Shown here piece by piece: positions 547-17,436 of a stretch of 20,064 nucleotides of DNA. Numbering within the stretch: the first letter of the stretch is position 1; each line of letters opens with the position of its first letter. The stretch lies in the IMG/VR virus record IMGVR_UViG_3300022074_000489, positions 1-20,064 of that record, one strand, 5' to 3'. The notes below the pieces were generated by a model that was given only the letters and a program-made list of their open reading frames with translations, was not told the DNA's origin and did not search any database. This DNA is from a virus. The position numbers and the translations under genes are program-made.

Positions 547-750
547 ATGTTAAAGCGTAGCAAGTACTCACCAAGATTCACAACACTCAAAGAGGCTCAA
601 GAATGGGGTCGTAATCAAACCTTTGATGATGTATGGTTCTTGATCCACAACAGAGAAGATGAGGACTATCAGATGGTTAATGACAGTCGGCTTCACTATC
701 TCCAACATTGTTGGGGATTGGATATGAGAATACTTGAGACTTGGGAGTAA
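547..750 (+). CDS. Small early phage protein, unknown
   Basis: This gene encodes 67 residues, starting after GAGG at 538-541. It is rich in aromatic and charged residues (WFLIHNREDEDY, LHYLQHCWGLDMRILETWE). There is no membrane segment and no motif I recognise. It heads a two-gene unit with the protein at 753, two bases downstream. Cytoplasmic location is inferred from composition only. Confidence 0.75.
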   Translation: MLKRSKYSPRFTTLKEAQEWGRNQTFDDVWFLIHNREDEDYQMVNDSRLHYLQHCWGLDMRILETWE

Positions 751-752
751 AC

Positions 753-962
753 ATGTTGAATAGCCTCTACAAAGTCGGAGACTTATACACATACAACAAC
801 AAGGGTGCGACTACACTGTGTGATACATTGGTCGTGATACTGGGTCATGATCCCTACAGTGATAAGCATGTAAAGATCCAGTTCTTAAAGAACGGAATGA
901 TCGCACGAGGATGTTGGATAGGGTACTTGCTTCCAGTAGAAACGGACATATTTTGTCCTTGA
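753..962 (+). CDS. SH3-like 'KVGDLY' early protein
   Basis: This gene encodes 69 residues. ATG 753 is preferred to the upstream TTG at 741 because GGGAG at 743-747 has good spacing. YKVGDLYTY at residues 6-14 opens a predicted small beta barrel like those at 1015, 1294, 1473 and 1643. The last codons (encoding TDIFCP) overlap the palindrome at 944-958, so coding and regulatory DNA share bases. Function is unknown; such folds often bind protein or nucleic acid. Confidence 0.7.
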   Translation: MLNSLYKVGDLYTYNNKGATTLCDTLVVILGHDPYSDKHVKIQFLKNGMIARGCWIGYLLPVETDIFCP

Positions 963-986
963 TTATTTTCGACAACAGATTACATT
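944..986 (+). promoter_or_regulatory. Palindromic operator plus sigma70-like promoter
   Basis: GGACA 944-948, TATTT, TGTCC 954-958 form the palindrome. TTGATT 959-964 is -35, 16 nt follow, and TACATT 981-986 is -10. The palindrome overlaps the end of the preceding gene. Centre-to--10 distance is 30 nt. It drives the gene at 1015. Confidence 0.75.
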
Positions 987-1014
987 ATATACATCAACAA
1001 CAAACGAGGTCATT

Positions 1015-1239
1015 ATGAACATCAATGTAGGCAACTTAGTAAGAGTAAATTTAGGATTCTTTTCAGTCGAGGGCGATCCGCTCAGATGTGAACGCAAGTA
1101 TGCTTGGGGATTGGTCAAGGAGATCCGCAGAGAAGGCGAGCGATTTATGGTTCATTTCATAGAAGATAATCGAGAGTACCTTATCAAGAGATTCGACATA
1201 AAAACAGTTGTCACAGACGATGGACAAATTCTGTCCTAG
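1015..1239 (+). CDS. SH3-like 'VGNLVRV' early protein
   Basis: This gene encodes 74 residues, starting after ACGAGG in the shared leader. VGNLVRVNLG at residues 5-14, then WGLVKEI, RFMVHFIED and REYLIKRFDIKTV, give alternating strands with basic patches, consistent with an SH3/KOW-like barrel. The final codons (DGQILS and stop) form the next palindrome. It appears to be a single-gene unit between two early promoters. Nucleic-acid binding is possible but unproven. Confidence 0.75.
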   Translation: MNINVGNLVRVNLGFFSVEGDPLRCERKYAWGLVKEIRREGERFMVHFIEDNREYLIKRFDIKTVVTDDGQILS

Positions 1240-1265
1240 ACAAAACCAACCCAACTGATTATATT
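1222..1265 (+). promoter_or_regulatory. Palindromic operator plus sigma70-like promoter
   Basis: GGACA 1222-1226, AATTC, TGTCC 1232-1236 form the palindrome. TAGACA 1237-1242 is a weak -35, 17 nt follow, and TATATT 1260-1265 is -10. Centre-to--10 distance is 31 nt. It drives the three-gene unit starting at 1294. Confidence 0.75.
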
Positions 1266-1293
1266 ATAGACATCAACAGCAGAGAGGTATTCA

Positions 1294-1476
1294 ATGTGGA
1301 CAGAACAATTCAAACTCGGCAACTTGGTTAAGTACATAGATCCTTGTGACAAACATGGCATAGGAACCGGAGCCATAGGGATCATAACCGAGAAGATAAA
1401 CCGACATGGCAGATACGGAATACTGATTGGATACAGAACAGTTTATATTCAACACTGGCTATTGGTGAGACAATGA
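1294..1476 (+). CDS. SH3-like 'LGNLVKY' early protein
   Basis: This gene encodes 60 residues, starting after AGAGAGG. FKLGNLVKYIDP at residues 6-17, GAIGIITEK and YGILIGYRTVYIQHWLLV match the barrel pattern of its neighbours. The gene heads an operon whose next member starts inside its stop codon (ATGA at 1473-1476). It is probably a diverged paralogue of the proteins at 1473 and 1643. Role unknown. Confidence 0.75.
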   Translation: MWTEQFKLGNLVKYIDPCDKHGIGTGAIGIITEKINRHGRYGILIGYRTVYIQHWLLVRQ

Positions 1477-1661
1477 AAAGATTTAGTGTAGGGGACTTGG
1501 TGATATGTGATGATGGGCTTGTAGCCAGATACGATCGACTCTATCTCATCATCCAACGGTTCACTCAAACCCTTGTGCGGATACAATGTGTGAGAACAGG
1601 TAAAAAAGATATTGTTAATATTGACTGGTTAAGGGAGGCCCCATGCTCAAGTACAAGATAG
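1473..1661 (+). CDS. SH3-like 'VGDLVIC' early protein
   Basis: This gene encodes 62 residues and shares a 4-nt ATGA overlap with the gene before it, typical of translational coupling. FSVGDLVICDDG at residues 4-15 is followed by strand-like segments (LYLIIQRF, LVRIQCV) and the closing KDIVNIDWLRE. This matches the local 'GDLV' family pattern. The end overlaps the next gene by 19 nt. Function is not known. Confidence 0.75.
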   Translation: MKRFSVGDLVICDDGLVARYDRLYLIIQRFTQTLVRIQCVRTGKKDIVNIDWLREAPCSSTR

Positions 1662-1855
1662 GTGACCTAGTAGAATGGAACTGTTGGTATGATGAGTGGG
1701 CACTAGCCATAATCACAGAAGAAGAAACACCATATACTAAACTAGGATACAGGATAAAGTTTGTCCAAGTGGACTCCTCCATCTATGTAGGTCAACACTC
1801 TCTAAGGCTACCCACCTACTACCCTACCCCTATGGGGTATCCAAAACTCCCATAA
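1643..1855 (+). CDS. SH3-like 'IGDLVEW' early protein
   Basis: This gene encodes 70 residues. ATG 1643 follows GGGAGG at 1633-1638, itself inside the preceding gene. YKIGDLVEWNCWYDEW at residues 4-19 closely parallels the KVGDYVEW start of the protein at 14448, linking early and late copies of the fold. The C-terminal tail is Pro-rich (YYPTPMGYPKLP) and its codons include a 6-bp hairpin (1825-1839, TACCCC/GGGGTA with TAT loop) that might slow transcription at the end of the unit. Confidence 0.75.
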   Translation: MLKYKIGDLVEWNCWYDEWALAIITEEETPYTKLGYRIKFVQVDSSIYVGQHSLRLPTYYPTPMGYPKLP

Positions 1856-2409: not shown

Positions 2410-2469
2410 GGACAGATTATGTCCAAAGTAAACAAAGTGATTTGACAAATCTCCAGAACTGATTATATT
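2410..2469 (+). promoter_or_regulatory. Palindromic operator plus consensus sigma70 promoter
   Basis: GGACA 2410-2414, GATTA, TGTCC 2420-2424 form the palindrome. TTGACA 2442-2447 is a perfect -35, 16 nt follow, and TATATT 2464-2469 is -10. The palindrome centre is 47 nt before -10, the longest distance in the set, and this copy has the best -35. It drives the gene at 2500. Confidence 0.8.
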
Positions 2470-3672: not shown

Positions 3673-3690
3673 AGGGGCCGCAAGGCCCTT
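3673..3690 (+). terminator. GNRA-capped hairpin after an early operon
   Basis: GGGCC 3675-3679, GCAA loop, GGCCC 3684-3688, with A-U and G-U pairs extending the stem outward, lie 13 nt past a stop codon. No U-tract follows, so this may act as an RNA end-stabiliser or a weak terminator. Confidence 0.45.
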
Positions 3691-3704
3691 CACAGGGAGC
3701 CCCC

Positions 3705-3723
3705 AAATACTTTACATTTCGAT
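3705..3723 (+). repeat. Third AAATACTTTACATTTCGAT copy
   Basis: This is an exact copy of the tandem 19-mer at 2319 and 2346. It stands immediately before a GC-rich structured stretch (3723-3803). Confidence 0.65.
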
Positions 3724-3803
3724 GCGCAGCAGCGCACGTGGGAGCATCTTCACTTCGTTACGGCAGAAATTCCCGCTCTGCGGCGGATCAAAAATCTGCC
3801 GTA
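3723..3803 (+). other. GC-rich noncoding stretch with nested hairpins
   Basis: TGCGC 3723-3727 pairs with GCGCA 3732-3736. TACGGCAGA 3759-3767 pairs with TCTGCCGTA 3795-3803, and inside that loop CCGC 3773-3776 pairs with GCGG 3780-3783. Composition is clearly more GC-rich than its surroundings. It could be a structured RNA or a protein-binding region. The weak reading frames across it have no ribosome site. Confidence 0.45.
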
Positions 3804-3827
3804 TGAAGTGGAAAGGTTATTTCAAGC

Positions 3828-3880
3828 GGACAAATTATGTCCGTTTCCAAGTAGACGATCTCTTCAAAATCGATTAAATT
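3828..3880 (+). promoter_or_regulatory. Palindromic operator plus promoter variant
   Basis: GGACA 3828-3832, AATTA, TGTCC 3838-3842 form the palindrome. TAGACG 3852-3857 is a weak -35, 17 nt follow, and TAAATT 3875-3880 is -10. Centre-to--10 distance is 40 nt. The leader differs from the others and carries AAAAGGAG. Confidence 0.7.
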
Positions 3881-7046: not shown

Positions 7047-7604
7047 ATGTGGTTTATTTTTAATTTATGGGCGTGCACAGCCGCGCAATTTGATGACGAG
7101 GTGAAGGATGTTCCTGAAAAGATAGAGGAACCCGATCCGATATACTGGGAGGCCTGCTCCTATCAGGAAGGTGATCACATTTGTGATTTTACTTATGCAA
7201 ATGCGATGGATACTACAACCACTCTGTATGATTATTATGGAGAGATTGTGGTGATAAAATATATGACCGAGTGGTGTCCTTATTGTAGAGATGCTGCTGA
7301 GGGTGAGGAGTATTATATTAAAGATGGTACTGTGATGCTTAGTGTGATGATTGAGAACCAATATGGTTTAGATCCTCGGCAAGAAGACGCAGAACGATGG
7401 TCTAATGCATATGGCCTAGATCCAGAGGAAGTTTTAAGGGCCGGTGATTACATCTTGGACTCAAGCGCAGAGTGGGGACCTGATATAGCTGGGTTTCCGA
7501 GTTTTATCATTGTTGATCAAGATATGAATATTACACATAAAATTCGTGGTTGGTCTCTGCAATTAATGAAAGATTCGATTGCCGAACTGAAATCCGACGA
7601 ATAG
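7047..7604 (+). CDS. Thioredoxin-like protein with possible lipoprotein signal
   Basis: This gene encodes 185 residues. ATG 7047 follows GGAGGG at 7035-7040 with ideal spacing; an upstream GTG at 7023 is less likely. CPYC at residues 77-80 in the setting EWCPYC is a thioredoxin/TlpA-type redox centre, and GFPSFIIVD further on supplies the cis-Pro loop and core strand. The start MWFIFNLWAC may be a very short lipoprotein signal, but it lacks basic residues. Family knowledge suggests thiol-disulfide exchange in the host envelope. It forms a pair with the VWA protein just downstream. Confidence 0.75.
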   Translation: MWFIFNLWACTAAQFDDEVKDVPEKIEEPDPIYWEACSYQEGDHICDFTYANAMDTTTTLYDYYGEIVVIKYMTEWCPYCRDAAEGEEYYIKDGTVMLSVMIENQYGLDPRQEDAERWSNAYGLDPEEVLRAGDYILDSSAEWGPDIAGFPSFIIVDQDMNITHKIRGWSLQLMKDSIAELKSDE

Positions 7605-7624
7605 TTATTGATGGAGGGTTGTTT

Positions 7625-8602
7625 ATGTTTGCATTATTATTTTTTCTTCTGGGCTGTTGGTCCGATCAGGGTTTAACCCACGAGGTCATTAAGGAGGTTG
7701 AAGTAGTAGTCTACGATACAGCCTATGTCGAGGTTGAGGTTGAGGTAGAAGTCGAGGTTGAAGTAGAGGTCGAGGTGCTCGTACCAGAGCAATATCCTCT
7801 TTGGGTTCAAGCCATTATCCAACCAAAGCTTATGAATGGTATCGACATTCTGTGGGTTGTTGACCCTTCTGGTTCTATGACAAATGATATGCCACGAGTT
7901 GCCGATGGCGTTACGCAGATGATGAATGCTTTGCCAACAAACGTATTCTGGAGACTTGAGATTCTTTCAACTGATTACATATCTGCTTTGAATATGGCTT
8001 CATTTCCTTTACTGCCTGGAGATTCTGCCAATGATGCTCAAGCTCAACTAAACAACAACGTTCATGGCCATCGTGAAGGTGGGCTTGAAGCTGCTAAGTT
8101 TTTTATGTCTCAAAATATTGATGCCTATCAATGGTTGCGAAGCGATGCGGCCTTGTTGATTGTTTTCGTCTCTGATGAGGACGACCGAAGTATTGGGTGG
8201 GATGGACAAGCGTTCATACAATGGATTAAGTTCGTTAGAGAAACGGTCTACGTTACAGCCATCGTGAACCAAGACAACTCTATTAGCGAATGCCCAGGTC
8301 AATTCAGCGCAGTTAATGATGTTGGGCATGAATATATGGATGTTGCGAATCATTTTGGTGGAGTCATCATTGACATTTGTGCAGATGATTGGAGCCAAGG
8401 GGTTGCGCAAGCCTCAAGTCAGTTACAGCTTATTGAGGAAATAAAGTTGGACTATACTCCTGTCTCTGACCAGCATATCGAAGTTTTTGTCGATAGTGTT
8501 ATATGGCCAGATTGGACTTACGATGCGACGACAAATATAATTACATTTACGGTTGTACCACCAGAAGAGTCTCTGATAGAAGTTGTGTATAATTACCAAT
8601 AG
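7625..8602 (+). CDS. von Willebrand A-domain lipoprotein-like protein
   Basis: This gene encodes 325 residues, with GGAGGG at 7613-7618 and ATG 7625. The N-terminus FALLFFLLGC gives a lipobox-like LLGC (Cys 11). Then comes a run of alternating Val-Glu from about V35 to V51. The VWA domain has DPSGS (D80, S82, S84) as metal-ion site residues and an Asp in VSDEDD (D184). A C-terminal beta domain (WPDWTYDATTNIITFTVVPP) follows. VWA domains bind protein ligands through the metal site; similar lipoproteins are common in Myxococcota-like bacteria, so host origin is likely. It could be a surface or virion adhesin. Confidence 0.8.
   Translation: MFALLFFLLGCWSDQGLTHEVIKEVEVVVYDTAYVEVEVEVEVEVEVEVEVLVPEQYPLWVQAIIQPKLMNGIDILWVVDPSGSMTNDMPRVADGVTQMMNALPTNVFWRLEILSTDYISALNMASFPLLPGDSANDAQAQLNNNVHGHREGGLEAAKFFMSQNIDAYQWLRSDAALLIVFVSDEDDRSIGWDGQAFIQWIKFVRETVYVTAIVNQDNSISECPGQFSAVNDVGHEYMDVANHFGGVIIDICADDWSQGVAQASSQLQLIEEIKLDYTPVSDQHIEVFVDSVIWPDWTYDATTNIITFTVVPPEESLIEVVYNYQ
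7727..7777 (+). repeat. GAGGTN-type hexamer repeat encoding Val-Glu run
   Basis: About eight and a half copies of a GTN-GAR unit encode alternating Val and Glu. Synonymous third bases vary between copies, so the peptide pattern rather than the DNA seems to be kept. An extended, charged stalk between lipid anchor and VWA domain is a reasonable reading. Confidence 0.75.
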
Positions 8603-8615
8603 AATATACTATTTA
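8601..8615 (+). promoter_or_regulatory. AGAATATACTATTTA element, second copy
   Basis: This is identical over 15 bases to 5894-5908. It begins at the last two bases of the VWA gene and ends 16 nt before the kinase ATG. TTGTGT at 8584-8589 with a 16-nt spacer to TATACT could serve as -35 here. Confidence 0.45.
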
Positions 8616-8631
8616 TTGCTGAGGAAACGCA

Positions 8632-10650
8632 ATGAAAGTTAAGGTAAAAAGAAAAGTTGTAAAAGAACAGGAAGCATCTGAGCCTACTTGGATGGGAATG
8701 ATGGGCGGCGACGCAGGTACAGCGGACCCTGATCTTAGTACGATGAGTCCAGCTTCTACAATCCCAATTACAAAGGATACAGAGAAGAAAGAGGTTCCTG
8801 AAATTAACAAGATAAAAGAACTAGGGTATGACGTTAAGAAGAAACTTGGGCAAGGAAAGTACGGTACCGTATATCTGGTAATGAAAGATAACACTGAGTA
8901 TGCTATGAAAGTTGTGGGAACAAACCCCGATGATCAGGGTGCACAACAAAGAGAAGTTGAGAATTATAAAAAAGTACAAATGGCAAGAGTAAAAAATCCT
9001 CTGATTGCGAAACACTTCCCTAAAACAATGTTTGCCAAAGTCATCGATGGTTACGGCTATATCGTGATGGAGAAGCTTGAATTTGGTTCTAAGTCTTATA
9101 TAATAGATGATATGTTTCAAGGCCCGGAAGCTACCGTTCCGGCCGATAAAGAACAGCAACACAAGTCAATGGCGAAGAAAGCTTACCAGGTTTTGACGAA
9201 TAAAGATTCTAGAGAAGCTTTACTTGATTCTATGTTTACACTTGTTGTGTTACCAGAAGATGTCGAAAAGCAAATACAAGGTGAGATGGAAGTTGTTACT
9301 TATCTGAATAGGGCGGACTTAGGTTCAGAAAAGCCTGAGAGTGAAGAACAGCTTATAAGGATGGCTGCTGATATAATATCTCCGGCAGCTTACGAATATA
9401 TATTCAACACTCCTGCTGGAGATACACCCCAGCCTGGAGATCTAAGAGCAATATATTATTTCAATCCTGGTCTTCTCGTGTTTTTGCTTAAGGCTCTGAA
9501 GACGGTCAAAAAAATACAACCAGACCAATATATGAGAACTGAGTATTCGGCTGTTGTTGAATATGCTAATTTTTTAAGAAAAGCAAGCCCGGTGCCCTTG
9601 CATTACAAACACAAGTACGGTAAAGGTAGTGGGGCTAGTGATAAGGTGGCCGGAGCGTTTAAAGAAGCAACTAGCATAAGAAAAGCCCTAGATGCTTTAA
9701 GGCAGGAGTCTGGGCTTGTGGGTAGAGATATGCACGATCAAAATGCGATGATTAGACCCCGTACTGGTGACGTTGTTATTGTCGACTTGGGTTTGTTTAG
9801 GCCTGCTGGTGGCTCTTTGGAAGAAAAAAGAAAGAAACGAAAGAAGCGCCGAAAGTCTAGAAACAAATATCATTGGAACGTTGGAAGTTGGTACTACGGT
9901 GGTGGTTATGGAGACCACGGAGACGCCGGCGGTGATGGTGGCGGTGGTGACGGCAAGCGTGATGACAAAAAGAAAATTAAAATTAAGATTGTAAAGAGCT
10001 TAGAAGAAAAATGTCAGAAAGGTTATAAGACTCACCCAACAAGAAAAACAAAAAAGATGTTTGGGAAAACGTATCGTAACTGTGTTAAAGCAGAAGGGCA
10101 AGTTGAAGAAGTGTATTCGGATAAACAAAGGCGATATATGTGTGCAATGGCAGAGCCGGATGCTGATAGGCCAGAGGGGCTATCGAAAGCAGAAGCAGAA
10201 GAAATGTGTAAAGGTCCAATGAAAGAAGGGTGGTCCGATAAGTACAAAAAGTCAATCGATTGCAGTAACCCAAAAGGCTTTTCTCAAAAAGCTCACTGCG
10301 ATGGCAGAAAAAAGAAAGAAGGCAAAGACCCAGCGAAAGGCACCGGTAAGAAGCCGAAGGGTTCTGGTCGTAGATTGTACACAGATGAGGACCCAAGTGA
10401 CACTGTATCGGTAAGTTTCAAGTCTGTCTCGGCAATACAGAAGACGTTATCTAAAAAATCTTTTAAGTCAAAGAGTCATAAACGACAATCACAGATAATT
10501 AATCTGATACACCAAAGAGCGAGAGCGGCTTATCAGAACGCCAAAGACCCAAAAGTCAAGGCAAGACTCAAGAAAGCATATGAGTACGCTAAGAAGCGAA
10601 AAGAAGCTTCTAAAAAGAAAACCATTCGAATGAGGAAAAATAAAAAATGA
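8632..10650 (+). CDS. Protein kinase fused to basic Cys modules
   Basis: This gene encodes 672 residues, with GAGG before ATG 8632. A kinase-like domain covers about residues 65-395: glycine loop LGQGKYGTVYL (72-82), Lys 93 in AMKVV, catalytic GRDMHDQNAM (Asp 366, Asn 371) and VDLG (Asp 385) as the metal-binding motif. The usual HRD is GRD, and the stretch between Lys and the catalytic loop is long. An Arg/Lys-rich and Gly-rich linker follows (400-445), then basic modules with Cys pairs: KCQKGYKTHPTRKTKKMFGK and SIDCSNPKGFSQKAHCDGRK. Such modules recur in marine phages; their role is unclear. Its end overlaps the next gene (ATGA). Virion delivery of the kinase is a hypothesis. Confidence 0.8.
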   Translation: MKVKVKRKVVKEQEASEPTWMGMMGGDAGTADPDLSTMSPASTIPITKDTEKKEVPEINKIKELGYDVKKKLGQGKYGTVYLVMKDNTEYAMKVVGTNPDDQGAQQREVENYKKVQMARVKNPLIAKHFPKTMFAKVIDGYGYIVMEKLEFGSKSYIIDDMFQGPEATVPADKEQQHKSMAKKAYQVLTNKDSREALLDSMFTLVVLPEDVEKQIQGEMEVVTYLNRADLGSEKPESEEQLIRMAADIISPAAYEYIFNTPAGDTPQPGDLRAIYYFNPGLLVFLLKALKTVKKIQPDQYMRTEYSAVVEYANFLRKASPVPLHYKHKYGKGSGASDKVAGAFKEATSIRKALDALRQESGLVGRDMHDQNAMIRPRTGDVVIVDLGLFRPAGGSLEEKRKKRKKRRKSRNKYHWNVGSWYYGGGYGDHGDAGGDGGGGDGKRDDKKKIKIKIVKSLEEKCQKGYKTHPTRKTKKMFGKTYRNCVKAEGQVEEVYSDKQRRYMCAMAEPDADRPEGLSKAEAEEMCKGPMKEGWSDKYKKSIDCSNPKGFSQKAHCDGRKKKEGKDPAKGTGKKPKGSGRRLYTDEDPSDTVSVSFKSVSAIQKTLSKKSFKSKSHKRQSQIINLIHQRARAAYQNAKDPKVKARLKKAYEYAKKRKEASKKKTIRMRKNKK

Positions 10651-12112: not shown

Positions 12113-12367
12113 ATGGAAATTTTAATGGAATCACTGGCTCAGTACGGGCCATTAGGTCTCTGGACTGCTTCACTTCTGTATGCCAACTATCAAACCCGCA
12201 AAGATGCCAAAGAGGAAGAGCGTCTTTTGCAAGATAAGGTCATAGATAAACTTGAGAAACAACATACAATGCTTGAAAGAGCGTTGGATAAGTTGGATCT
12301 AGGGTTAGATATGAAAAAACAGATGCATCAGGAAGCTAGGATCAGAGAACTGAACACTAAAACCTAA
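12113..12367 (+). CDS. Small membrane protein, possible BhlA/UviB-type holin
   Basis: This gene encodes 84 residues. ATG 12113 lies 11 nt after AAGGAGG (12095-12101); the nearer ATG at 12106 opens an unrelated short frame. Residues 7-25 (LAQYGPLGLWTASLLYANY) form one weakly hydrophobic span, followed by a long charged coiled coil (KDAKEEERLLQDKVIDKLEK onward). One N-terminal span plus a charged helical tail is the layout of BhlA/UviB-like holins, but a structural membrane protein is equally possible. It stops at the start of an A/T-only palindrome. Confidence 0.7.
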   Translation: MEILMESLAQYGPLGLWTASLLYANYQTRKDAKEEERLLQDKVIDKLEKQHTMLERALDKLDLGLDMKKQMHQEARIRELNTKT

Positions 12368-12389
12368 TATTTAAATATTATATAATATT
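12365..12389 (+). promoter_or_regulatory. A/T-only overlapping palindromes, UP-like element
   Basis: TAATATTTAAATATTA (12365-12380) and AATATTATATAATATT (12374-12389) are overlapping perfect palindromes just before TTGACA at 12395. The position fits an A/T-rich UP element that contacts polymerase alpha subunits. A weak terminator for the preceding gene is the alternative. Confidence 0.45.
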
Positions 12390-12394
12390 TTCAT

Positions 12395-12423
12395 TTGACA
12401 AACCCTCCCAAGTATGTTATATT
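12395..12423 (+). promoter_or_regulatory. Strong sigma70-type promoter for HAD-Nudix gene
   Basis: TTGACA 12395-12400, a 17-nt spacer and TATATT 12418-12423, preceded by TGT (extended -10). The untranslated leader is about 70 nt and carries three TATAAC motifs. No GGACA palindrome is present, unlike the early promoters. Confidence 0.8.
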
Positions 12424-12501
12424 GTAATTGTTACAGTGGAATATAACGAAAAACTATTTATGATATAACAATATTATAACATATCTTGAGGAGGATGTCA
12501 A

Positions 12502-13962
12502 GTGAAATATAAAAAAATATCTTTTGATTGGGATAATACTATCGCAATGAGCTATATGGTTGATTCTGATGACTCAGAACTTCCTGTATATACATTTCAA
12601 GGACATAATAATAAATTAATAGATTTAATTAAAGATTATTATAATCAAAATATAGAATTATTCATAGTAACTTCTAGGAAAAGACAATTAGAACAGTATT
12701 ATCCTGAAGATTCAGTGCTTTACCAACTCAGGTTACTCAAATTAGACCATATCTTCCCTCCAGCAAGAGTTCACTTCACTGAAGGTGACCTAAAAGCTAA
12801 GACTTTACGCAGTCTTGGTATTGATTTACACTACGATGACAGTATGGAAGAGGTTTTGGAGTGTAAAAAAGCAGGAATTGAAGTGATTCCCTCCATGGAC
12901 TTCCATCCAGACACCAATGTTATAGCAAAAGGTGTCATCAGAGACATAAATGGTGATGTTTTGTTACTAAAACGTACTGATGAGGGTACAAAGTGGGACA
13001 TTCCCGGTGGTCATATCAAGAAAATTGAAGATGATAGGGGTCTAAAAGGCCTAGCAGACGGTTTGGAGCGTGAAGTAGCAGAAGAAACAGGTATTTTAGT
13101 ACCAAATTCTAAGCTGATTGACAAGTATGAACACACTTGGAAGGAACATCATAACCAAATGAACATACTTTTAGTCGATATTGAGTTTGAAAAGCCCTCT
13201 GTGGACCTAAATGTTCAGAAATTCCAAGAAAACTCGGAATATGTTTGGGCCACTAACGAAGAATTAGAGCAATATTTACCACAAATGACCGAGGCTGCTA
13301 AGATTGCAATCCAAAATTACCTTGAAAACAAGGATAAACCAGTTGTAACAGAGGCAGCCTACCTTCCATCACAAGCTCGATCGTGGGCAAAGATGAAGAA
13401 AAGGCTAATTGGTATGGGTAAGAACAAGCATACTGGCGGAGGCTCTGGCCATAGTAGACCAAAAATGACAAAAGGCAAGGCTGCACCACCTGAATTTGCT
13501 GTTTTAGAGTCCGATGAAGCAAAAAAAAAAGAATTAAAGTCAAAATTGTCCGAAAGTCTGGACAAGGTAATCAATAAAGCCCGAAAAACCAAGGATGATC
13601 CGTCTGCAAGAAGGGCTCAACGCATAATTGACGCTATGGATAGGCTTTTAGGTAGTAAATCTAAGTCCATATTGTCTCTAGAAGAGGAAAACCTACTATT
13701 TGCCGAGACATTAGAGACATTCATCAAGGATTCTAAGGGCAATCCACTCGAAATGGTCACAATTAAGGGCTCCGGCTCTGGATATTACTACTCTATGAGC
13801 GATAAAAAGCCAATCTTGGTGCCTAGAGCCGGAGAATACTACCTAGTTTCCGAAAAACCAGACGATTTAGGCAGATTAAAGGTATATTCTCACTACAAAT
13901 TTACATCTGGGGTCGTTTTATTGATACCAAAAGATGAAATTCAACGGATTGGGTGGAATTAG
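12502..13962 (+). CDS. HAD-like and Nudix hydrolase fusion with phage tail domain
   Basis: This gene encodes 486 residues. GTG 12502 follows GAGGAGG (12488-12494). Residues 1-135: HAD-like phosphatase with FDWDNT (Asp 9, Asp 11), TSRK (57-60) and DDS (112-114). Residues 138-285: Nudix domain, PGGHIKKIE ... REVAEETG (190-197). Between the first Glu and REVAEE there are 13 residues instead of the usual 7, an insertion in the Nudix box. Residues 286-486: a basic linker (AKMKKRLIGMGKNKHTGGG) and a region without known fold. The enzymes would hydrolyse phosphate and nucleoside-diphosphate-linked substrates, not identified here. The first 200 nt look more A/T-rich than the rest. Confidence 0.85.
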   Translation: MKYKKISFDWDNTIAMSYMVDSDDSELPVYTFQGHNNKLIDLIKDYYNQNIELFIVTSRKRQLEQYYPEDSVLYQLRLLKLDHIFPPARVHFTEGDLKAKTLRSLGIDLHYDDSMEEVLECKKAGIEVIPSMDFHPDTNVIAKGVIRDINGDVLLLKRTDEGTKWDIPGGHIKKIEDDRGLKGLADGLEREVAEETGILVPNSKLIDKYEHTWKEHHNQMNILLVDIEFEKPSVDLNVQKFQENSEYVWATNEELEQYLPQMTEAAKIAIQNYLENKDKPVVTEAAYLPSQARSWAKMKKRLIGMGKNKHTGGGSGHSRPKMTKGKAAPPEFAVLESDEAKKKELKSKLSESLDKVINKARKTKDDPSARRAQRIIDAMDRLLGSKSKSILSLEEENLLFAETLETFIKDSKGNPLEMVTIKGSGSGYYYSMSDKKPILVPRAGEYYLVSEKPDDLGRLKVYSHYKFTSGVVLLIPKDEIQRIGWN

Positions 13963-15551: not shown

Positions 15552-16479
15552 AATAACATCACTCAAGGAATTGATAGAGATAGCCCAGATGGATGAGTAC
15601 TCTTCATCCGCCGCTATCTCAGGCATGGCTGCAATTCCACCTAAAGAAAAAATAAGGAAGCGTAATAATATGAGAAGAGAAATGCAAACCGAGCAACTTC
15701 TAAGACAACACATTAGAAAAAAGATTAAAGCACACCTTAAAGAACAAAGTGGACAAGAAGAACAACTTCGCTTAGTGATTCGTTCTCTTATCCAAGAGGC
15801 AAAAGATACAGCCAATCCTCACCCAAGTACCGGTATCAATAAATTGCGTGATGCTTTTCGCAAAGCAAAACCCTCTATCAAAACCAAGTTCCAGCAACTA
15901 ACGACTTCACAAGAACAACGACAGTCGTTTACAGCTCACTTACTCAATGCCTTTATGAGTCTATATGATCAGCTCGATGCTCTCAACGCTCAAGGTGCTG
16001 CTCCTGATATTGACGCACCAAGTGGAGGCGATGCTGCGATTGATGGTTTAGCGCCACCACCGGAAGACACCGATATCGAAGCTGATGTAGAAGCTGAGGT
16101 TGCAAAAATAATAAGTGAAATTGAGGTAAAGATTGAGGATGATGACGAAGAAATTGATGTAGTCTCAGATGAAAAGCCAAAGGAAAAAAGCCAAGTTGAA
16201 AAAGACGTTGATAAAAAGAAAGACCTTGAAGCTGAAAGAGAAGCATTTGGTTCTGGAGTCGGCGAAATGGACAAAACTGGTCGTAACCAGTCCTTTGACG
16301 CATTCAGACTTGTACAATCCTATTTCTCAGACGCTTATCTTGATCTAGATAACGAAGCTGATCGCGAGATGTTTAAAACTTGGATGCTTTACAATCTAGA
16401 CCTGCTATTGAAGTCGTATGAATCAGAATTGAACCCTGACTTAGCTAAACCTGACATTCCGAATCCGGAAGGTGCCTAG
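15532..16479 (+). CDS. Acidic scaffold-like phage protein
   Basis: This gene encodes 315 residues and overlaps the peptidase gene by 20 nt. After an N-terminal segment with AAISGMAAIPPKEK comes a basic helix (LLRQHIRKKIKAHLKE) and LVIRSLIQEA, helical repeats to about residue 160, then a strongly acidic stretch (DIEADVEAEVAKIISEIE, EDDDEEIDVVSDEK) and a conserved-looking end (FDAFRLVQSYFSDAYLDLDN). This composition resembles prohead scaffold or core proteins. IQEA would fit the T4 prohead protease rule (I/L-x-E before a small residue). Assignment is tentative. Confidence 0.75.
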   Translation: MTKKIVEITSLKELIEIAQMDEYSSSAAISGMAAIPPKEKIRKRNNMRREMQTEQLLRQHIRKKIKAHLKEQSGQEEQLRLVIRSLIQEAKDTANPHPSTGINKLRDAFRKAKPSIKTKFQQLTTSQEQRQSFTAHLLNAFMSLYDQLDALNAQGAAPDIDAPSGGDAAIDGLAPPPEDTDIEADVEAEVAKIISEIEVKIEDDDEEIDVVSDEKPKEKSQVEKDVDKKKDLEAEREAFGSGVGEMDKTGRNQSFDAFRLVQSYFSDAYLDLDNEADREMFKTWMLYNLDLLLKSYESELNPDLAKPDIPNPEGA

Positions 16480-16832
16480 TGTGGCAAAAAAAGAATAATG
16501 AGTACAAGGGCAAGTCGTACTATTACTCAACCGTCAATAAATTAAGAAAAGAAAAGAAGATAGATGATCAGTTTGAAGTCATGCTATCTTCTTTATCTTT
16601 AGAGGAACTTATATCTGTTAAGCTAGAACTATCAGCAAGGTATCTTAATAACAGGATGTATAACTTTCCTATATGGAAATCTATTGAAGCAATATGTCGA
16701 GAAGCCGTGGTTAGGTTTGCTTTGTCAACTTGTCGTTCCAAGCTTGACGCCGCCTCTTTTCTAGGCCTCAGCCTTGGCGATCTGAATCTTAATTTGAAAA
16801 AAATGAAAATAAAATTTGACAATGAAAACTAA
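16479..16832 (+). CDS. Fis-like DNA-binding protein
   Basis: This gene encodes 117 residues. GTG 16479 shares a base with the previous TAG, and GGAAGG stands upstream. The N-terminal half is basic then helical (LSLEELISVKLELSARYLNN). Residues 76-110 (VVRFALSTCRSKLDAASFLG and following) match the Fis-type helix-turn-helix 'AL..C..N...AA..LG.S...L...L', with the second helix at AASFLG. I recall similar small regulators in marine phages. It may control transcription or DNA packaging. The end of the gene contains the promoter of the downstream RNA element. Confidence 0.75.
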   Translation: MWQKKNNEYKGKSYYYSTVNKLRKEKKIDDQFEVMLSSLSLEELISVKLELSARYLNNRMYNFPIWKSIEAICREAVVRFALSTCRSKLDAASFLGLSLGDLNLNLKKMKIKFDNEN

Positions 16833-16844
16833 ACGTGTTATATT
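16816..16844 (+). promoter_or_regulatory. Strong sigma70-type promoter for RNA element
   Basis: TTGACA 16816-16821, a 17-nt spacer and TATATT 16839-16844, preceded by TGT. It has the same design as the promoter at 12395. It overlaps the stop codon of the Fis-like gene. Transcription should start near 16851. Confidence 0.85.
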
Positions 16845-16850
16845 AAAGGA

Positions 16851-16989
16851 AAGAGTTTAGGACTGCTGTCTGAGATTAAGATGACAATATTATGTATTCC
16901 TCCCTATAATGGCACACATATTATCCTCCTCCCAAATCTGCCAACTAATATTGTAATACATTTTAACCCCAGGCAGCAGCTCCTTTTTT
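16851..16989 (+). ncRNA. Candidate small RNA with CCUCC loops and terminator
   Basis: The predicted fold is one long hairpin. The outer stem is 16860-16872 with 16970-16983 (13 bp, one bulged C, one G-U), followed by six T (16984-16989). Then a 3x3 internal loop, TTAAGATG 16876-16883 with CATTTTAA 16959-16966 (8 bp, one G-U), and ACAATATTA 16884-16892 with TAATATTGT 16946-16954 (9 bp). The apical part has a 6-bp hairpin (16906-16911 with 16919-16924) flanked by unpaired CCTCCC 16899-16904 and CCTCCTCCC 16925-16933. These two motifs complement GGAGG ribosome sites. It could instead be a structured leader for the gene at 17002. Confidence 0.65.
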
Positions 16990-17001: not shown

Positions 17002-17436
17002 ATGGACGATAAATTAAAAAAAGAACTTAAGGATACCATACTCAAGACCATAGCAAATGGAATAGCTTATGCTTTTATGACTCCCGACCAGAGAGATAAA
17101 AAAGAACAAGAGCTGGTAGAGTACTTAAAAGAGCGAGAGTATCAAGTCTTGATCGAAAACTGTATGATTTACGTCCTATCAGACGATTGGGAAAAGATCC
17201 TAATGATGGAAATGACAAGGAACACTTTGTATTTCAATCCAGTAGATATGAAGCAAACATCAGAAGTTATTTACTATGTGCTTCAGTTCACAGCAAAAAG
17301 TTATTTAGACCAGTTAATGCCTCTGCCGAAAAAAAAGAAAAAAGAGGTAATTAAAAAAGAGGAGGATGAAGTCAATTTTGATGAGGAAGAGGAAACAGAA
17401 GATGATAAGCCCACCCCGTCATTCGACTTCTTATAA
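17002..17436 (+). CDS. Helical protein with acidic C-terminal tail
   Basis: This gene encodes 144 residues from ATG 17002; GTG 16999 would add one residue. No ribosome site is visible: the start lies 12 nt after the U-tract of the RNA element. The body is helical (LKDTILKTIANGIAYAFMTP, VIYYVLQFTAKSYLDQLM), then a Lys stretch and a Glu/Asp-rich tail ending TPSFDFL. A short hydrophobic-acidic C-terminus is how T4 late-transcription factors and polymerase contact the sliding clamp, so a clamp-binding tail is conceivable but unproven. Family not recognised. Confidence 0.75.
   Translation: MDDKLKKELKDTILKTIANGIAYAFMTPDQRDKKEQELVEYLKEREYQVLIENCMIYVLSDDWEKILMMEMTRNTLYFNPVDMKQTSEVIYYVLQFTAKSYLDQLMPLPKKKKKEVIKKEEDEVNFDEEEETEDDKPTPSFDFL

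What the first reader, a model, noticed from the sequence alone, without database searches (positions are those of the whole stretch)
16816..16989. Phage-encoded small RNA candidate with its own promoter, long hairpin and U-tract
A near-consensus extended -10 promoter is followed by about 135 nt in which the first and last bases pair. The outer stem is 13 bp with one bulge, then 8-bp and 9-bp helices continue inward, and six T follow. Two CCUCC-type motifs sit unpaired on both sides of a small apical hairpin. Helices nested in register over about 30 bp are unlikely by chance. The shape matches an independent small RNA better than a normal leader, though a read-through leader for the gene at 17002 is possible.
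Basis: partly seen in the sequence, partly recalled or inferred. Interest (0 to 1): 0.8.

Follow-up and report, generated by a model that had tools for sequence, protein, structure and literature searches.

The report
RNA element surviving its host gene
A folded RNA signal that related marine phages carry inside a sugar-enzyme gene (phosphomannomutase) is kept by this phage after the gene itself has gone, right behind the gene's old promoter, so it looks like a small RNA left over from a gene and probably still useful on its own.

Summary
The hairpin is real: 16851-16989 folds at -37.6 kcal/mol, z -5.35, 0/200 shuffles as good, behind an 11/12 sigma-70 promoter. In the closest relatives the same promoter, between the same neighbours, drives an intact ~270-aa phosphomannomutase (PMM) gene. 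The window keeps only a piece of that gene (codons ~52-83), without a start codon and frameshifted: exactly a region that behaves as a structured RNA inside the intact genes. There a long helix (P1) joins codons 53-58 to 111-117. It beats all 400 synonymous-codon shuffles in 7 of 7 genes and recurs in the same register in three PMM subclades through compensatory changes (7 of 18 pairs changed on both sides). The CCUCC loop is almost invariant at silent sites. Whether it is a free trans-acting RNA (favoured), a cis-acting leader for gene B, or a relic is unproven: no transcript data, one lineage only, no target found, origin of the window's 3' strand unresolved. No Rfam family matches. New variant of a known kind (dual-function or intragenic regulatory RNA).

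The parts
16816..16844 (+). sigma-70 promoter (TTGACA-17-TATATT, TG-extended -10); syntenic with the promoter of the PMM gene in relatives
   Evidence: same box behind gene A in L004, L006, L007, L010, L013, L014, L040 and in the L032-L038 group
16851..16989 (+). predicted RNA, about 139 nt, MFE -37.6, z -5.35
   Evidence: transcript ends are inferred, not measured
16859..16872 (+). 5' strand of outer helix P1 (AGGACUGCUGUCUG); collinear with PMM codons ~52-57
   Evidence: sequence match alone marginal (17-23 of 300 shuffles)
16876..16892 (+). 5' strand of inner helices P2a and P2b
   Evidence: (P2b 3/2000, P2a 120/2000)
16889..16945 (+). best conserved part: CCUCCC, apical helix P3 and C-rich loop; homologous to PMM codons 64-83 with a 1-nt frameshift
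   Evidence: 0/300 shuffles, all 7 relatives; model R1, built without the window, hits 16910-16950, E 5e-5
16899..16904 (+). first C-rich motif CCUCCC, unpaired in the window fold
16910..16943 (+). apical helix P3 (UGGCA/UGCCA) with a 24-nt loop
16920..16933 (+). loop motif AUUAUCCUCCUCCC; core AUUAUCCUCC occurs once in each of 9 contigs
16946..16984 (+). 3' strands of P2b, P2a and P1; evolutionary origin ambiguous (PMM codons 207-224 or 101-119)
16984..16989 (+). six T after the stem: terminator-like, unproven
   Evidence: one search finds no classical short-loop terminator
16479..16832 (+). gene A (117 aa, unknown), upstream neighbour conserved in PMM-bearing relatives
17002..17436 (+). gene B (144 aa from the ATG, unknown), next gene downstream; follows or overlaps the end of PMM in the close relatives

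Best explanation
SHOWN: in a family of marine phages the phosphomannomutase (PMM) mRNA contains a structured RNA element. A long helix P1 joins codons ~53-58 to ~111-117 and encloses a conserved C-rich stretch and a small hairpin P3 whose loop carries AUUAUCCUCC. The window lineage has lost PMM as a coding gene at this place but keeps the promoter and the central part of this element, again closed by long helices. INFERRED: the element has a job of its own, separate from the protein. With start codon and flanks deleted, the old PMM promoter now makes a compact ~140-nt RNA beginning just before the P1 strand and followed by a U-run. MOST LIKELY MECHANISM (weakest step): the rigid stem presents unpaired CCUCC motifs, identical to the anti-Shine-Dalgarno core of 16S rRNA, as pairing seeds against G-rich ribosome binding sites, as the C-rich sRNAs of S. 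aureus do. In relatives the same surface would act from within the PMM mRNA or from a piece cut out of it.
For: Same promoter and neighbours, PMM (PF03332, 6.8e-38) in place of the element. Window 16889-16945 homologous to PMM codons 64-83, 0/300 shuffles. Intact genes: P1 duplex -26 to -31 kcal/mol against -7 to -9 for synonymous shuffles, 0/400 in 7 of 7; the stretch starting at codon 51 has the lowest score along 8 of 9 genes. Covariation on 9 sequences: 7/18 P1 pairs changed on both sides, score 0.234 against 0.138 +/- 0.019, 0/500, slid versions 0.06-0.15. Between the two close subclades the loop is 42/45 nt identical with 6-7 of 7 fourfold sites kept, P1 arms 27-32/51 with 0/3 fourfold sites kept yet still paired, rest of gene fourfold 26-52%. 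TATTATCCTCCTCCC is unchanged in the window although the frame shifts just before it. U-G pairs in P1 (column pair 12/189 in 7 of 9 sequences) would be A-C mismatches on the other strand, so the + strand is the RNA. C-rich seeds pairing with Shine-Dalgarno sequences: PMC3961350.
Against: No RNA data. The gene-less form is known in one lineage only (window and L001, nearly identical). The window's 3' strand cannot be traced safely to the PMM P1 3' strand. No 10-nt perfect complement of the core motif was found elsewhere in the nine contigs searched; two RBS in the window pair well (12113, -22.6; 12502, -19.8; background -10.3 +/- 4.3) but any CCUCC RNA pairs with strong RBS. The L032-L038 group lacks PMM at this place and has no element. 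U6 after a >100-nt hairpin may terminate poorly.
Confidence: 0.5

Rival explanations
1. Cis-acting leader: the element works on the transcript that carries it (processing by RNase III, attenuation or antitermination, mRNA stability) for the genes B, C, HNH downstream, in relatives from inside PMM and in the window as an untranslated leader.
For: Same promoter and same operon position in both forms; gene B starts ~10 nt after the U-run with no room for another promoter; in PMM bearers B follows or overlaps PMM; P1 and P2 together form about 30 bp in the window, a size RNase III could cut (general knowledge).
Against: The L032-L038 group keeps A, the promoter and C without the element. Gene B has no clear Shine-Dalgarno for the C-rich loop to mask. 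The U-run argues for stopping rather than reading on.
Confidence: 0.28
2. Neutral relic: the gene was lost not long ago, the fragment still folds because the ancestral mRNA did, and it has no function now.
For: Single lineage; the 3' part may come from PMM codons 207-224; loss may be recent.
Against: Several indels have accumulated (start codon deletion, 1-nt frameshift, loss of at least 50 nt inside) while the C-rich loop and base pairing stayed; the helices together are strong; flanking genes have diverged to 50-58% fourfold identity from the closest PMM bearers. If the 3' strand is new, pairing was rebuilt, which points to selection or to a templated inverted-repeat mutation.
Confidence: 0.18
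3. Short peptide gene: ATG 16881 opens a 36-aa frame MTILCIPPYNGTHIILLPNLPTNIVIHFNPRQQLLF.
For: Open frame present, weak GAG spaced before the ATG.
Against: The frame leaves the PMM frame at the 1-nt deletion, so only the nucleotides are kept; the start lies inside the helix; no homologue can test it.
Confidence: 0.04

Closest known systems
Dual-function RNA SgrS/SgrT (enterobacteria)
   Same: One RNA carries a coding frame and a separate RNA function; in some species the frame is gone while the RNA stays (Yersinia SgrS lacks sgrT; PMC4021124).
   Different: Here the frame is a ~270-aa enzyme and the structured element overlaps the codons; RNA function untested; no sequence relation.
S. aureus C-rich sRNAs (RsaA, RNAIII)
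   Same: Unpaired conserved C-rich seeds, suited to pair with Shine-Dalgarno sequences (PMC3961350).
   Different: No shared sequence or fold was tested or is evident; no target demonstrated here.
T4 gene e/soc/49 type RBS-sequestering leaders
   Same: Phage mRNA helix close to a promoter.
   Different: No ribosome binding site lies in the hairpin; that arrangement fits window 12389-12507 instead (PMC3014915).
Rfam 15 families
   Same: None at gathering score.
   Different: The sub-threshold matches (Clostridium-PBP 24 of 94 bits, MIR4378 24 of 90 bits and others) are far below gathering and read as chance.

Membership tests
Phosphomannomutase gene (PF03332) | Intact PMM reading frame | tested here: not met
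   Start codon and most of the gene absent, 1-nt frameshift; intact in relatives
Conserved structured RNA element | Pairing beyond what the protein sequence demands | tested here: met
   0/400 synonymous shuffles in 7 of 7 genes; also L054 0/300, L052 only 18/300
Conserved structured RNA element | Compensatory changes above control | tested here: met
   with the two close subclades alone only 2 pairs covary
Trans-acting sRNA | Separate transcript with own 5' and 3' ends | not testable with these tools
   Promoter and U-run only
Trans-acting sRNA | Conserved unpaired seed | tested here: met
   AUUAUCCUCC in all P1-bearing genes but the L013 variant (AUACUAUCCUCC), and in the window
Trans-acting sRNA | Complementary target | tested here: inconclusive
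   host unknown
Intrinsic terminator | Short-loop G+C-rich hairpin followed by a U-run | tested here: not met
   none; U6 follows a hairpin with about 100 nt between its outer strands
Dual-function RNA | RNA function persists without the frame | tested here: inconclusive
   Loop sequence conserved and long helices present without the frame in one lineage; function not measured
T4-type RBS-sequestering leader | Shine-Dalgarno or start codon in the helix | tested here: not met
   B start 16999/17002 lies outside the hairpin
Any Rfam family | Score at or above gathering | tested here: not met

The most novel reading that the evidence does not exclude
A phage gene caught turning into a small RNA: a functional RNA nested in the coding region of an auxiliary enzyme gene outlived the protein, and the deletions left it between the old promoter and a U-run as a free-standing regulatory RNA.
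Probability: 0.42. Interest if true: 0.75.

Novelty: new variant of a known kind. Interest (0 to 1): 0.62.

Why it matters
Where phage small RNAs come from is poorly known. Here related phages show both states side by side: an enzyme gene with a conserved RNA helix hidden in its codons, and a phage with only the RNA part. It gives a concrete, testable case that 'auxiliary metabolic' genes of marine phages can carry an RNA function besides the enzyme, and that gene loss can release such an RNA. It also defines a structured RNA element that is not in Rfam.

Tried and rejected
Rfam, at gathering and permissive thresholds: nothing. tRNA/tmRNA: none. DNA similarity to named phages: only chance matches; PMM in named phages only at 22-29% identity. 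Minus-strand RNA: rejected, because U-G pairs in P1 become mismatches and the model scores 13-20 bits there against 208-236 on the plus strand. Autoregulation of PMM by masking its own Shine-Dalgarno: sites differ between subclades and match poorly in the L004 clade (by eye). Phage-internal targets: no perfect 10-nt complement conserved outside the element; RBS pairing energies not decisive. Most more distant PMMs among 78 genes show no P1, so the element is not general to PMM. A looser loop pattern gave many hits without specificity; many share one spacing that would fit a ribosome binding site before a start codon, and they were not followed up. Other gene-less copies: none in 16 contigs searched whole with the model nor in 16 further gene-A loci. 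Papers on PMM with an RNA element in phages: none recognised in the titles listed.

Full report
Observation. The sequence is as described. The strand 16851-16989 folds at -37.6 kcal/mol against -20.2 +/- 3.3 for shuffles, z -5.35, 0 of 200. The promoter TTGACA-17-TATATT with extended -10 lies at 16816-16844. Tested one by one against shuffled 3' strands, P1 (0/2000), P2b (3/2000) and P3 (31/2000) hold up and P2a (120/2000) does not. The second C-rich motif sits in the apical loop, not beside it. Other stretches of the window also fold strongly, so folding energy alone would not make this special. The record is viral, and another contig has the same sequence over 5.6 kb with one mismatch.

What stands there in relatives. 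Neighbouring genes were used to find related loci. In the closest ones (L004, L006, L007, L010; gene A 83-87% identical) and in a second group (L013, L014, L040; 58-60%) the interval behind gene A starts with the same promoter but holds an intact gene of ~270 aa. Pfam identifies the product as phosphomannomutase, PF03332, E 6.8e-38. Window 16889-16945 aligns with codons 64-83 of this gene in all seven relatives tested (score 64-72, shuffles about 24, 0/300). The 5' strand of the hairpin continues collinearly into codons 52-65 with a weak match. The start codon, the first ~50 codons and most of the rest of the gene are missing, and a 1-nt deletion breaks the frame after NGT. The 3' strand of the window hairpin matches either codons 207-224 (L010, 2/300) or the natural 3' strand region around codons 101-119 (weaker); its origin is unresolved. 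The window is a 20-kb fragment, so a PMM gene elsewhere in this phage cannot be excluded.

The fragment is a structured element in the intact genes. Folding the intact genes showed a long helix P1 at the place corresponding to the window hairpin. In the L004 group it is UGCUGCUGGAGAAG with CUUCUCCAGCGGCA; in the L013 group GGGCUUGUUG-A-UGGAGAAU with AUUCUUCAACGACAAGCCC. The codons differ (CTG CTG / CAG CGG CAG against TTG TTG / CAA CGA CAA) but the register is identical. Permuting synonymous codons within each gene never gave arms that pair as well (0/400 in each of 7 genes; -26 to -31 against -7 to -9 kcal/mol). A scan along nine genes has its lowest score in the stretch that begins at codon 51 in eight of them. 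A further, more distant group shows P1 in the same register with other codons: L054 (0/300), and L052 more weakly (18/300). On the model-based alignment of nine sequences 7 of 18 P1 pairs have changes on both sides, 13 cells in all, covariation 0.234 against 0.138 +/- 0.019 (0/500) and 0.06-0.15 for slid versions. That alignment was fitted to the structure, which favours it somewhat; the ungapped alignment of the two close groups alone gives only two such pairs. Most more distant PMM genes do not have P1.

Loop against stem. Between the two close groups the 45 nt of codons 66-80 are 42/45 identical with 6-7 of 7 fourfold sites kept. The P1 arms are only 27-32 of 51 identical with none of 3 fourfold sites kept, and the rest of the gene keeps 26-52% of fourfold sites. 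Conserved loop with covarying stem is the usual mark of a functional RNA. The strand is the coding strand: P1 contains conserved U-G pairs that would be mismatches in the complement, and the model scores the minus strand at 13-20 bits against 208-236. The core AUUAUCCUCC occurs once in each of nine contigs searched, including those of the L052 and L054 type, and only in the element.

The gene-less state. A covariance model built without the window still finds the apical part in the window (16910-16950, E 5e-5) but not the stem, because the spacing changed and the 3' strand differs. The window differs from the L004 group at 42-50% of fourfold sites in flanking genes, so the lineages have been apart for some time; when the gene was lost is unknown. 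What is left of the gene is essentially the element: promoter, a few bases, 5' strand, C-rich stretch, P3 and loop, closing strand, U6, gene B. The L032-L038 group lacks PMM at this place and has no trace of the element, so the element is not needed by every phage with this gene order.

How it may work. This is the least certain part. A stem that holds CCUCC motifs open resembles the C-rich sRNAs of Staphylococcus aureus, whose seeds mask Shine-Dalgarno sequences (PMC3961350). In the window two ribosome binding sites pair well with the loops (genes at 12113 and 12502), but any CCUCC RNA would do so, and no perfect 10-nt complement conserved among the phage contigs was found. The target could be in the unknown host, or a protein. 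The cis rival is serious because gene B has no other evident promoter. The neutral rival is weakened, not removed, by the retained pairing and loop.

Comparison. No Rfam family matches. The nearest functional parallel is the dual-function RNA SgrS/SgrT, where some species keep the RNA without the coding frame (PMC4021124). Phage-encoded sRNAs as such are known (review PMC12197685, outline read only). A structured RNA overlapping an enzyme's codons in phages and then found without the enzyme was not recognised in the literature searched, but that search was limited to open-access papers.

Noticed in passing
window 12389-12507: 33-nt imperfect palindrome (z -6.2) made of two convergent sigma-70 promoters (12395-12423 +, 12501-12473 -); the 3' strand holds the Shine-Dalgarno GAGGAGG of the HAD/Nudix gene starting at 12502 and the 5' strand a matching CCCTCCC. 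Read-through RNA would mask the RBS, RNA started at the + promoter would not, as in T4 gene e. Convergent promoter pairs also lie before this gene in L141, L144 and L145.
   Followed up: partly
window 3690-3835: Very stable hairpin (CACTTCGTTACGGCAGA.../TCTGCCGTATGAAGTG) in a stretch without an obvious gene; lowest z (-6.4) in the window scan for the segment starting at 3711.
   Followed up: no
window 741-1855: Five consecutive small ORFs (about 60-74 aa) share a VGDLV/LGNLV-like start (KVGDLYTY, NVGNLVRV, KLGNLVKY, SVGDLVIC, KIGDLVEW): possibly a tandem family of small paralogues.
   Followed up: no
window 2442-2469: Another exact TTGACA/TATATT promoter match, about 30 nt before the ORF that starts at 2500.
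   Followed up: no
L032, L034, L036, L038 behind gene A: The same promoter drives a different ~90-aa gene (MLDEQIDRIIAKFKGKGGDEEAECILVDNN...) where others have PMM: a promoter with exchangeable cargo.
   Followed up: no
L139 and its record IMGVR 3300017739_000239, contig 7453-8909, minus strand: In the near-identical contig the HAD/Nudix gene appears split by a frameshift or stop near codon 350; in the contigs of L010, L014 and L040 its two halves are also found as separate matches.
   Followed up: no
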